Source of the DNA: a virus
DNA length: 22,236 bases
Direction: 5' to 3' (one strand)
Virus record (IMG/VR): IMGVR_UViG_3300029911_000153
Coordinates: 1 to 22,236 of that record
Made by a program: the position numbers and the translations under genes. The notes beneath the pieces are model-generated. The model was not told the DNA's origin and made no database searches. It saw nothing but the letters and a program-made list of their open reading frames with translations. How positions within the stretch are numbered: the first letter of the stretch is position 1; each line of letters begins with the position of its first letter. Shown one piece after another: positions 11,033 to 20,866 of this stretch.

Positions 11033-11061
11033 ATATTATGTTATTTCACTTTGCGTGGCAA
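11033..11061 (-). promoter_or_regulatory. Candidate leftward promoter for scaffold and capsid genes
   Basis: On the minus strand the box GCAAAGTG (11047-11054) is followed after 6 bases by CATAAT (11035-11040). Just upstream is TTGCCA (11056-11061), 5 of 6 to a sigma-70 -35 site, spaced 15 bp from CATAAT or 17 bp from TAATAT (11033-11038). The site is in the short gap after the portal stop. Transcription would start near 11028 and read scaffold and capsid. Confidence 0.55.
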
Positions 11062-15865: not shown

Positions 15866-15874
15866 AGCGCACCT

Positions 15875-15929
15875 CCTATGTTAGAATTATTTAAGGCCTG
15901 CATTTCGTGTCATTCCCCAAAATCAAATT
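15875..15929. repeat. 55-bp perfect direct repeat, copy A
   Basis: It is identical over 55 bp to 16391-16445; flanking bases differ on both sides. On the minus strand this copy encodes the last codons of the 69-residue gene (ending GNDTKCRP). It then carries ATG plus the first codons of the downstream frame (MQALNNSNI), which here stops after 16 codons. Confidence 0.95.
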
Positions 15930-16119: not shown

Positions 16120-16419
16120 TTAGAAGCAAACGTAATACAGAGTTCCCGTAAACGCCGTCATGGTCACTGTAACTGCCGCCGTAGATAGTGCCGTGATCGC
16201 CGGTGTTGCCAAGGCTGCGCTCCCCGTGAAATTGCAAGCAAGGCCTGCCGTGGGAGATGCTGCATTCCAAGTCAGTGTTAGCGTCGTGGCGCCAGATAAA
16301 CCTGTAACTTTTCCTGCGTTGGATGTTGATCCCGTGTCGATTGTTCCTGCAGAAGCGGTAGGGATCGCACCACCAAGACTGAGCGATCCCCCTATGTTAG
16401 AATTATTTAAGGCCTGCAT
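16120..16419 (-). CDS. Small beta-rich structural-type protein
   Basis: This 99-residue protein begins within repeat copy B (MQALNNSNIGGSLSLGG). It is rich in Thr, Ala, Ser and Gly, with alternating strands: SGATTLTLTWNAASPTAGLA, then TAAVTVTMTAFTGTLYYVCF. This resembles small beta-sandwich virion or fibre accessory proteins. The only ribosome site is GGGGA about 10 bases upstream, which is weak. The gene lies directly after the 628-residue fibre-like gene and may be a fibre partner. No family is recognised. Confidence 0.62.
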   Translation of the reverse strand: MQALNNSNIGGSLSLGGAIPTASAGTIDTGSTSNAGKVTGLSGATTLTLTWNAASPTAGLACNFTGSAALATPAITALSTAAVTVTMTAFTGTLYYVCF

Positions 16420-16445
16420 TTCGTGTCATTCCCCAAAATCAAATT
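16391..16445. repeat. 55-bp perfect direct repeat, copy B
   Basis: It is the second copy of 15875-15929, 516 bp away. Here it starts within the stop codon of the fibre-like gene and contains the start region of the 99-residue gene. The codons matching the end of the 69-residue gene are present but have no upstream gene body, so they are a remnant. Confidence 0.95.
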
Positions 16446-18828: not shown

Positions 18829-18863
18829 GGTATCCTCCATGCAAAAGGGGAAATTTCAGACCA

Positions 18864-18893
18864 CACTATGGCACAGCACTATGGCGCGCGCAA
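18864..18893 (-). promoter_or_regulatory. Candidate leftward late promoter with doubled box
   Basis: On the minus strand GCCATAGTG (18877-18885) is followed after 6 bases by CATAGT (18865-18870), itself part of a second GCCATAGTG (18864-18872). TTGCGC (18888-18893) lies 17 bp upstream of CATAGT. The start would be near 18858, with a 30-base leader to the first late gene. Confidence 0.45.
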
Positions 18894-19076
18894 GCAGTAA
18901 GCGGAAGCCGGGCTGTTTCAAAGCGGCAGAGACCAATTCCCCAGCAGGGTGGCGCCATCCTCCGGCAGGGTGCGATCCACCGGGCTTTGCGTCCCGGCAA
19001 GGAGGCCCCGGGCCGGTTCCGCCACGAAGTGTACTATGAGGCGGCGGGGTTTGGCAATGGGGTTATGTTGTTTGAG

Positions 19077-19144
19077 AAGGAGTTAGGGAATTACGATGTC
19101 GGAATTACGATATTGGTTGGGGAGGGTTAAGGAGTTAGGGAATT
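19077..19144. repeat. 16-bp direct repeat pair
   Basis: AAGGAGTTAGGGAATT occurs at 19077-19092 and again at 19129-19144. GGAATTACGAT is also doubled between them (19088 and 19101). Function unknown; the pair lies at the border between the GC-rich and AT-rich parts of the control region. Confidence 0.85.
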
Positions 19145-19466
19145 TAATTTTTGGCAAAAAATTCCCGAAAATTTTGCAGTTTGGGACTGATCTCCGCAAA
19201 TTTAAAAAGTTCAATCCCCTCGAGCCCTATCCCCCAAGTTGCACAGTTATAAAGCAATAAAATTAAACTGCCCTGCCGTGACTAGTCACTATGCAGCCTC
19301 GCGCCTTAAACCTAAAACGCCTTAGCCCTAAGTCAACTTAATTTTAACTGCCTTGTATCTTGCCTCCTTATAATTTAGCCGCGCGGCGCCTCATTCACTT
19401 TGCATGGCTATAATACTAATATCATAGTGAGGTGTTAAGCTATTTTATGGTGTTTTTTAAAATAAA

Positions 19467-19486
19467 AATATAACCATGCACTTTGC
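19467..19486 (-). promoter_or_regulatory. Candidate leftward promoter in the control region
   Basis: On the minus strand GCAAAGTG (19479-19486), then 6 bases, then TATATT (19467-19472). No -35 hexamer is evident. The box lies within the 16-mer GCACTTTGCATGAATG (19478-19493), which recurs inverted at 19944-19959. If active, it would give a long untranslated leader before the first late gene. Confidence 0.4.
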
Positions 19487-19884
19487 ATGAATGCTGTTAA
19501 CCTTTTGTTAACTACATTCAATATGCACGCAAAGGAAATTGTTTTGTTTCAAGGGGTTAAGTGGGGTATGCCCAATGTTTATTTGTGTTAGGCTTTAAGG
19601 CGTTGAATTGTTTAGTTTTTTGGTGGTGGTGTGACCATGATGTCTATAATAATAACTAAATCCTAAAACATATATACTAGAGAAATTTTGTTTTTCTCTT
19701 TTTCTGCAATTTCTTTCTGTGCAGGGTACCCCTGTTTTTGAATTCAGTTATAAATCAGTACTTCATGGCGAATTTGCCAAACAATTCAATGCCCATGCGT
19801 GCAACCTCTCACTATGACACATACCCGCAATAAAATTACCCAATAGCAAAATCAATGGGTTACATTATTCCATGCTCGCGTAGT

Positions 19885-19958
19885 CACTTTGCAAAAACAT
19901 GCACTCATGGGCTAAAAACAGGCATTTTGAGCTAAAAAACACGCATTCATGCAAAGTG
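19885..19958. repeat. Three tandem 20-bp iteron-like repeats flanked by inverted boxes
   Basis: Units at 19891-19910, 19911-19930 and 19931-19950 align without gaps: GCAAAAACATGCACTCATGG, GCTAAAAACAGGCATTTTGA, GCTAAAAAACACGCATTCAT. CACTTTGC (19885-19892) and GCAAAGTG (19951-19958) flank the array as perfect inverted copies. Period 20 puts successive units near two helical turns apart. It could be an operator array or a replication origin. Confidence 0.7.
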
Positions 19959-19970
19959 CCGTGGTAAAAA
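19951..19970 (+). promoter_or_regulatory. Candidate rightward early promoter, weak
   Basis: GCAAAGTG (19951-19958) is followed after 6 bases by TAAAAA (19965-19970), a 4 of 6 match to TATAAT. It lies about 90 bases before the first early gene. A further TATACA (19984-19989) sits in the palindrome downstream and could be the true -10 element. Confidence 0.35.
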
Positions 19971-19972
19971 AC

Positions 19973-20031
19973 AATACGTTTTGTATACAAAAAGGAGTTG
20001 CAGCGTACTCAAAACCAGTATAAAACGTATT
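19973..20031. repeat. Palindrome and inverted repeat before the first early gene
   Basis: TTTTGTATACAAAA (19979-19992) is a perfect 14-bp palindrome containing TATACA. AATACGTTTT (19973-19982) recurs inverted as AAAACGTATT (20022-20031). The arrangement looks like operators over or just after the promoter of the regulator genes, allowing autoregulation. Confidence 0.6.
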
Positions 20032-20060
20032 CAAATCAACCCCAAAAAGGAGTAGTAAAA

Positions 20061-20345
20061 ATGGAAAAAAACAGCGTTAAATTAGTGATTACCGTAGCGC
20101 CGACGTGGCTAAGTGAATTTGAAAGCCTTGCAGCTCAAAAATTTATGAAGCCCGCCGCATACGCCCGCCTTGTGTTAGTAGAGCACTTGGCACAAAATAA
20201 ACTGCCAGTTACGCGGGAGGCTACATACAAGCAAACGCCCATGGACAAAAAGCTGGCGGCGGAAGCTGCGCAGCTGGGAGAAATTGACATATCTGTTCCG
20301 CTTGGCAAAGAGTTTGACGCCCAGCTGCCGTGGCTAAAGCCATGA
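20061..20345 (+). CDS. Ribbon-helix-helix-like DNA-binding protein (probable)
   Basis: This 94-residue protein starts at the ATG with AAGGAG 8 bases upstream. An upstream in-frame TTG lacks support. Residues 4-40 fit a ribbon-helix-helix fold: strand VKLVITV, helix PTWLSEFESLAAQKF, a turn, then helix KPAAYARLVLVEHLAQ. The rest (MDKKLAAEAAQLGEIDISVP) may form a second small domain. RHH dimers bind short palindromes or direct repeats in DNA. It is the first rightward early gene, downstream of an operator-like palindrome and iterons, so autoregulation is likely by inference. It overlaps the next gene as ATGA. Confidence 0.72.
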   Translation: MEKNSVKLVITVAPTWLSEFESLAAQKFMKPAAYARLVLVEHLAQNKLPVTREATYKQTPMDKKLAAEAAQLGEIDISVPLGKEFDAQLPWLKP

Positions 20346-20536
20346 GCATGCAAATCAGCAATAAATATTTAGCCTTGTTGGTGCAAACTGGCAGGACGCA
20401 AGGGGATATTGCCGCATACCTTGGCACAACACAGCCGAACGTGTGCAACTGGTTCCGGCATAAATATCCTATCCCGTCCAAGCACTGGCCGGAAATAGAG
20501 CGCTGGGTTGAAAGGTTAGCCAATGGTCAAAACTAA
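20342..20536 (+). CDS. Cro/YdaS-like helix-turn-helix regulator
   Basis: This 64-residue protein uses the ATG at 20342 that overlaps the upstream stop (ATGA). The helix-turn-helix is clear: LLVQTGRTQGDIAAYLGTTQ and NVCNWFRHKYPIP, followed by KHWPEIERWV. This matches small Cro/YdaS-type phage repressors, in which a 'tq.diA..lgttq..V..W' core is followed by 'IP..h...Ie'. It likely binds operators in the control region to switch transcription. Coupled translation with the RHH-like protein suggests the two act together. Confidence 0.78.
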   Translation: MSMQISNKYLALLVQTGRTQGDIAAYLGTTQPNVCNWFRHKYPIPSKHWPEIERWVERLANGQN

Positions 20537-20822
20537 GCGGCAGCGGGCCAAGCAACTGTTGAGCTGGCGAACGAATAACCCTACAAACGAGCTGTATCGG
20601 CGCGTGTTGCTTGCTCTTAGTGACCTTGACCTGCCGCATAGCAAGGGGCTAAGTGTGCGCGAGCTTGAGAACATCGTGGCGCTTAGCCCTGCTATGGTCT
20701 ACCAGTGCGCGACAGGGCGGCGCATGATACCGCGCGAAGCTTATCCGGCCATAGCGCGGGCCTCGCGGGATATTTTGCAAAAAGCAATAAAATTACCCAT
20801 TATGTCCTTGCATAGTGCATAG
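20523..20822 (+). CDS. Small HTH-like protein, probable regulator
   Basis: This 99-residue protein overlaps the Cro-like gene by 14 bases. The N-terminus is basic (VKTKRQRAKQLLSWR). Residues about 45-80 look like a second HTH: LSVRELENIVALSPAMVYQCATGRR, then MIPREAYPAIARASRDIL. The 'mvyqcatGRR.iP.e..p.Ia' pattern again resembles Cro/YdaS proteins. Its last codons contain a copy of GCAATAAAATTACCCA and the first promoter-type box. It may act with the two preceding regulators. Confidence 0.68.
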   Translation: MVKTKRQRAKQLLSWRTNNPTNELYRRVLLALSDLDLPHSKGLSVRELENIVALSPAMVYQCATGRRMIPREAYPAIARASRDILQKAIKLPIMSLHSA

Positions 20823-20866
20823 CTATAAACTATGATCCTTGCATAGTGCACGGTAACAAGTACACT
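20805..20866 (+). promoter_or_regulatory. Tandem rightward promoter-type boxes before the second early group
   Basis: TCCTTGCATAGTGCA occurs at 20805-20819 and 20836-20850, 31 bp apart. In the first, GCATAGTG (20810-20817) is followed after 6 bases by TATAAA (20824-20829). Alternatively TTGCAT (20809-20814) with 16-bp spacing meets TATGAT (20831-20836). The second copy has TTGCAT, 16 bp, then TACACT (20861-20866). It probably drives the genes from 20890 on. Confidence 0.6.

What the first reader, a model, noticed from the sequence alone, without database searches (positions are those of the whole stretch)
18864..20850. Repeated box GCA(A/T)AGTG placed 6 bp before a -10-like hexamer: candidate phage-specific promoter class
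Seen directly: GCAAAGTG-N6-CATAAT (minus, 11035-11054), GCCATAGTG-N6-CATAGT (minus, 18865-18885), GCAAAGTG-N6-TATATT (minus, 19467-19486), GCAAAGTG-N6-TAAAAA (plus, 19951-19970) and GCATAGTG-N6-TATAAA (plus, 20810-20829). Each points toward the genes that need a promoter there. Most lack a good -35 site. Three isolated copies of the 8-mer inside late genes (10436, 13251, 13369) have no -10 element 6 bp away, and single copies are expected by chance. Further copies at 19287, 19396, 19885 and 20841 lack the spacing. The box could be an activator site, a repressor site at -26 to -19, or part of a phage-specific promoter.
Basis: partly seen in the sequence, partly recalled or inferred. Interest (0 to 1): 0.72.

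Follow-up and report, generated by a model that had tools for sequence, protein, structure and literature searches.

The report
Repeated regulator-binding boxes in phage
An uncultured tailed phage carries about eleven copies of a 9-10 base word packed into the DNA between its early and late genes, most likely binding sites for a small phage-encoded switch protein rather than the new promoter type first proposed.

Summary
The repeats are real. GCAWAGTG occurs 14 times in the window against 1.9 expected. CAWAGTG occurs 9 times in the 1.2 kb divergent intergenic region against 0.39 expected. The box recurs as a cluster in the same region of two relatives about 77% identical in terminase; the fitted motif is T-K-CAWAGTG-M. 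The promoter reading (box, 6 bp, then a -10 hexamer) is not supported. In the relatives only 1 of 18 boxes has a -10-like hexamer at that spacing, the chance rate. The "hexamer" at 18865 is part of a second box copy. Boxes do not co-localise with sigma-70-like promoters in six phages.

Best explanation: an array of operators for a phage regulator. Box orientation follows the local direction of transcription (p=0.0004, six phages). Sister lineages use a different box, TCAATRGSTTA, in the same place. A small YdaS/Cro-like HTH gene (20330-20536 here) occurs in exactly the box-carrying records and in none of seven others. The window and each near-identical strain differ at only 3 positions in about 21 kb; two are the same C/A change at the same position of both tandem boxes (20818, 20849). 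Which protein binds, and whether it represses, is inferred.

The parts
18845..20060 (.). Divergent control region, 1.2 kb without a convincing gene, between leftward late genes and rightward early genes; A+T 58%
18864..18870 (-). Box CATAGTG, second of a tandem pair 13 bp apart
18877..18883 (-). Box CATAGTG, first of the tandem pair
19287..19294 (-). Box GCATAGTG
19396..19403 (-). Box GCAAAGTG, at the expected start site of the candidate leftward promoter 19438-19410
19410..19438 (-). Best sigma-70-like leftward promoter of the region: TTAACA-17-TATTAT (10 of 12)
   Evidence: consensus match only; the number of such matches does not exceed shuffles
19423..19429 (+). Box CATAGTG inside the spacer of that promoter
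19479..19486 (-). Box GCAAAGTG inside the palindrome ATGCA-AAG-TGCAT
19810..19816 (-). Box CATAGTG
19852..19862 (+). TCAATGGGTTA: single copy of the box used by the sister lineages G006, G010 and G017
19885..19892 (-). Box GCAAAGTG
19951..19958 (+). Box GCAAAGTG upstream of the first early gene
20061..20345 (+). Gene A, 94 aa, no family match; weakly ribbon-helix-helix-like in a low-confidence model
   Evidence: pLDDT 48
20330..20536 (+). Gene B, 68 aa, YdaS/Cro-like helix-turn-helix; leading candidate for the box-binding protein
20523..20822 (+). Gene C, 99 aa, weak HTH_31 match; alternative candidate binder
20784..20795 (+). GCAATAAAATTA, also at 19254 and 19827; conserved beside the proximal box in G003 and G004
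20810..20817 (+). Box GCATAGTG, first of the tandem pair before the main early operon; TTGCAT-17-TATGAT can also be read here as a promoter
20818..20818 (+). C here, A in G001 and G002: the base right after the first box
20841..20848 (+). Box GCATAGTG, second of the tandem pair
20849..20849 (+). C here, A in G001 and G002: the same position of the second box
11047..11054 (-). Isolated GCAAAGTG between late genes, not kept in G003 or G004; probably chance

Best explanation
The box (T-K-CAWAGTG-M, K = G/T, M = A/C) is the binding site of a phage-encoded DNA-binding regulator. About 11 copies form an operator array that controls both the leftward late transcripts and the rightward early transcripts from the divergent region. 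The most likely binder is the small YdaS/Cro-like HTH protein of gene B (20330-20536), made early, which would turn its own operon and the early genes down and time the switch to late expression. Shown: enrichment, confinement to the control region, conservation in relatives, orientation bias, concerted change of two boxes, and co-occurrence with gene B. Inferred: that gene B binds, that binding represses, and which promoters are affected.
For: Enrichment. TTGCAWAGTGM with up to 1 mismatch occurs at 3.4-6.8 per kb in the control regions of the window's phage, G003 and G004 against 0.08-0.20 per kb elsewhere in the same genomes. Base +7 was not chosen by the search, yet it is A or C in all 19 full sites, and T precedes G in 17 of 19. 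Orientation follows the local transcription direction, AUC 0.82, p=0.0004 over six phages. Sister lineages G006, G010 and G017 carry a different box, TCAATRGSTTA, at 3.3-5.5 per kb in the same region, as expected when a regulator and its sites diverge together. PF15943 (YdaS) HTH matches occur in exactly G000-G005, the box carriers, and in 0 of 7 other records, and the gene lies just upstream of a conserved proximal box. The window differs from G001 and from G002 at 3 positions each in about 21 kb; two are the same C/A change at the same place of both tandem boxes. YdaS of CP-933P is a demonstrated Cro analogue that binds a divergent intergenic region (PMC8630535).
Against: Boxes do not sit preferentially in sigma-70-like promoters, although host promoters may differ from that consensus. 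The gene B correlation rests on one clade, so it may be a single event. Gene B relatives are only 27-28% identical, and the structure search of its model found nothing significant. Genes A and C, or a host protein, could bind instead; G017 has the sister box without a detectable HTH_3 or YdaS match. The paired change could be gene conversion, and G001 and G002 may not be independent samples.
Confidence: 0.55

Rival explanations
1. Phage-specific promoter class: the box is a recognition element read together with a -10 hexamer 6 bp downstream, by a modified or phage-encoded polymerase.
For: Five strings with that layout exist; in the window 4 of 11 control-region boxes have a hexamer with at least 4 of 6 matches at N6 against a background of 5%; orientation follows transcription.
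Against: In G003 and G004 1 of 18. One of the five hexamers is a second box. No RNA polymerase-like gene was seen in the complete sister genome.
Confidence: 0.08
2. The box overlaps the -35 element of ordinary sigma-70 promoters (TTGCAW-17-TATRWT), so it is part promoter, part operator, at the proximal early site.
For: Window 20807 TTGCAT-17-TATGAT, G004 24795 TTGCAA-17-TATATT, and the equivalent G003 site TTGCAA-17-TATGTT, all just downstream of the HTH gene.
Against: Holds for one site per phage, not for the other boxes. The offset N13 has only 5 of 30 hexamers with at least 4 matches.
Confidence: 0.15
3. The boxes are initiator-binding sites of the phage replication origin, or a partition site.
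For: They sit in the largest non-coding, A+T-rich region, and the GC-skew minimum falls at or near this region in C2, G003, G010 and G017.
Against: Irregular spacing and both orientations, unlike iterons. Divergent genes alone would place the skew minimum there. One conserved copy sits directly before the early operon.
Confidence: 0.13
4. The boxes bind a host regulator, and lineages differ because their hosts differ.
For: G017 has the sister box without a detected HTH_3 or YdaS match.
Against: A pair-of-boxes scan of all IMG/VR viral contigs returned this clade and unrelated tandem repeats, with no other dispersed cluster recognised among those examined. The box follows phage phylogeny and the YdaS gene.
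Confidence: 0.09

Closest known systems
Stoperators and operators of cluster A mycobacteriophages (L5 repressor)
   Same: Short, largely asymmetric sites in many copies, orientation correlated with transcription, motif differing between related lineages (PMC9283540, PMC6550527).
   Different: Here 7-11 copies concentrated in one control region, not 20-30 over the genome; a 9-10 bp box with partial symmetry KCA-NNN-TGM; no L5-type repressor shown; no evidence on transcription stopping.
Lambdoid immunity regions with a YdaS/Cro repressor (prophage CP-933P)
   Same: A small YdaS-family HTH gene beside a divergent intergenic region with repeated sites; there YdaS is a Cro analogue that binds that region (PMC8630535).
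   Different: CP-933P has four evenly spaced 18-bp palindromes, two of them well conserved and overlapping the promoters; here sites are short, irregular and not promoter-locked; no tyrosine integrase (PF00589) in any of 13 records.
Bipartite phage promoters (activator box plus -10)
   Same: The layout box-N6-hexamer exists at some window sites.
   Different: Spacing not kept in relatives.

Membership tests
Phage-specific promoter (box-N6-(-10)) | Constant spacing of box and -10 in relatives | tested here: not met
   1 of 18 boxes in G003 and G004
Phage-specific promoter (box-N6-(-10)) | Dedicated polymerase or sigma factor encoded | tested here: inconclusive
   large genes of the complete sister genome are otherwise assigned or structural; PF00940 search had no working control; sigma factors not searched
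L5-type stoperators | Asymmetric sites oriented with transcription | tested here: met
   AUC 0.82, p=0.0004 over six phages; window alone p=0.02
L5-type stoperators | 20-30 sites spread over the genome | tested here: not met
   concentrated in the control region
L5-type stoperators | Sites block transcription elongation; L5-type two-domain repressor | not testable with these tools
   needs experiment
Lambda/CP-933P-type Cro-CI control region | YdaS/Cro-family HTH gene next to the sites | tested here: met
   (E about 1e-7 to 1e-6, below Pfam's curated cut-off)
Lambda/CP-933P-type Cro-CI control region | Sites overlap the divergent promoters | tested here: inconclusive
   no enrichment over six phages; one window promoter (19438-19410) carries a box in its spacer
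Lambda/CP-933P-type Cro-CI control region | Long (17-18 bp) palindromic operators | tested here: not met
   only KCA-NNN-TGM symmetry
Lambda/CP-933P-type Cro-CI control region | Temperate life with tyrosine integrase | tested here: not met
   0 of 13; distant relatives by capsid protein lie in Paraburkholderia and Glaciimonas genome contigs
Replication origin iterons | Regularly spaced same-strand repeats bound by an initiator | tested here: not met
   irregular spacing, both strands

The most novel reading that the evidence does not exclude
A stoperator-like silencing system in a phage family of Proteobacteria-type hosts: asymmetric boxes whose orientation matters, read by a minimal single-domain HTH protein, with whole-array replacement of one box (TCAATRGSTTA) by another (TTGCAWAGTGM) between sister lineages and box changes fixed in concert in a natural population.
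Probability: 0.15. Interest if true: 0.65.

Novelty: new member of a known kind. Interest (0 to 1): 0.4.

Why it matters
It gives an uncultured phage family a defined regulatory code and a candidate regulator. It also offers a natural case of two operator copies changing together between near-identical strains, which makes operator-regulator co-evolution testable with short synthetic DNA and one small protein.

Tried and rejected
Promoter spacing N6: fails in relatives. The -35 overlap with 17-bp spacer: good at one site per phage, not general. Simple palindromic operator: only partial symmetry. Host-wide or unrelated-phage use: the pair-of-boxes scan gave 50 stretches. Beyond this clade, those examined were tandem repeats (L134, L140, L148, L152, L153, L165, L166) or GC-rich repeat clusters (L137, L159, L172) in unrelated phages; the others mostly had only 2-5 copies and were not examined further. 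AAACCTTGCAAAGTGAAA in L058 and L059: a single copy each, no cluster, judged chance. The conserved early HTH of C2 22853-23059 (also in G003, G004, G010, G011, G014): does not track either box. Search for more relatives of gene B and its counterparts in IMG/VR: no further close ones. TerL search of bacterial genomes: none. Structure models from single sequences are too weak to use beyond helix layout. Rfam: nothing. Literature search for the box letters: no relevant paper recognised.

Full report
What was checked. The window is a whole IMG/VR record of 22,236 bp. Near-identical records exist: G002 (42,015 bp; its ends overlap by 2,073 bp, so 39,942 bp unique and probably circular, called C2 below when rotated to the window's start) and G001. 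So do relatives at 77-78% terminase identity (G003, G004, G005) and at 48-53% (G006, G010-G014 and others).

The repeats are not chance. GCAWAGTG: 14 against 1.9 expected; reversed-pattern control 0. CAWAGTG in 18845-20060: 9 against 0.39. An unbiased k-mer count in the corresponding regions of G003 and G004 again puts TGCAAAGTGA, TTGCATAGTG and overlapping words among the top repeated words. In the three lineages the control regions carry 29 CAWAGTG sites. The 19 with a leading G give T(17/19)-G-C-A-W-A-G-T-G-M, where M was never selected for yet is always A or C. TTGCAWAGTGM with up to one mismatch occurs at 3.4-6.8 per kb inside and 0.08-0.20 per kb outside. The copies inside late genes are conserved coding sequence in some cases (13251 and 13376 recur in the relatives' terminase/portal genes) and otherwise probably chance.

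The promoter rule fails. A hexamer with at least 4 of 6 matches 6 bp after the box: 4 of 11 control-region boxes in the window's phage, 1 of 18 in the relatives, background 5-7.5%. One window case (18865) is a second box 13 bp on. The alternative of a -35 overlap (TTGCAW-17-TATRWT) fits one conserved site per phage, just before the main early operon: window 20807, G004 24795 and the matching G003 site. Over six phages boxes do not fall within sigma-70-like promoters more than expected (7 against 7.6). The clearest window promoter, leftward TTAACA-17-TATTAT at 19438-19410, does have one box in its spacer and one at its expected start, but such promoter matches are no more frequent than in shuffles.

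What points to a regulator. First, orientation: minus copies lie on the late side and plus copies on the early side, AUC 0.82, p=0.0004 in a within-genome permutation over six phages; window alone p=0.02. Second, lineage exchange: G006, G010 and G017 lack this box but have TCAATRGSTTA at 3.3-5.5 per kb in the same region and at most 0.03 per kb elsewhere; the window keeps one copy at 19852. Third, gene co-occurrence: a YdaS-family HTH match is found in exactly G000-G005 and in none of seven others. In the window it is gene B (20330-20536), in G004 24548-24766 and in G003 37823-38293, each upstream of the conserved proximal box. The matches are below Pfam's curated cut-off, and B is only 27-28% identical to its counterparts. 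Fourth, strain variation: window and G002 differ at 20818, 20849 and 21481 only in the first 21,510 bp; window and G001 at 20818, 20849 and 21076 in 21,113 bp. Two changes in each comparison are C/A at the same position of both tandem boxes. With three changes in 21.5 kb, two landing on matching positions of one 15-bp repeat has a chance of roughly 1e-7 to 1e-6 (my estimate, made after seeing it), so the boxes change together, by selection or by gene conversion. 20818 also alters the last codon of gene C (Ala to Glu); 20849 is non-coding.

How it probably works (inferred). Gene B is made early with genes A and C, binds the boxes, and lowers early transcription and/or sets the balance of early and late transcripts, as Cro-type proteins do. 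YdaS of prophage CP-933P is a demonstrated Cro analogue acting on a divergent intergenic region (PMC8630535). The oriented, lineage-specific, largely asymmetric sites resemble the operators and stoperators of cluster A mycobacteriophages (PMC9283540, PMC6550527). Membership in that system is not claimed: copies are not spread over the genome and no such repressor is shown. Whether this phage is temperate is open: no tyrosine integrase in 13 records, but distant relatives by capsid protein lie in large genome contigs of Paraburkholderia and Glaciimonas.

Limits. All evidence is sequence-based. The binder is not identified; genes A and C, the replication machinery or a host protein remain possible. 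G017 carries the sister box with no detectable HTH_3 or YdaS match. The three box-carrying lineages form one clade, so gene co-occurrence may be a single historical event. The control-region limits used for the counts were set by hand from mechanical gene calls.

Noticed in passing
15866-15929 and 16382-16445: A 64-bp direct repeat, 95% identical, near the ends of small late genes.
   Followed up: no
19973-19985 and 20019-20031: Inverted repeat AATACGTTTTGTA / TATAAAACGTATT just upstream of gene A; may be a separate operator.
   Followed up: no
19254, 19827, 20784: GCAATAAAATTA three times in the control region, each near a box, and conserved beside the proximal box in G003 and G004.
   Followed up: partly
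G003 36765-38500 (L033): A second, palindromic repeat GTCATATGAC, three sites, in the same control region.
   Followed up: no
L176, L177, L179, L181, L182, L184: Relatives by capsid protein (50-66%) in bacterial genome contigs, including large Paraburkholderia and Glaciimonas contigs: likely prophages that could reveal hosts and life cycle.
   Followed up: partly
L134 7310-7362, L140 1465-1577, L153 8607-8743: Unrelated phage contigs with heptad CATAGTG arrays mixed with CATATG; in L134 and L140 near the same 233-234 aa gene.
   Followed up: partly
19562 (G002 terminal overlap): The two copies of the G002 overlap differ at one base (T/C), a sign of strain mixture.
   Followed up: no
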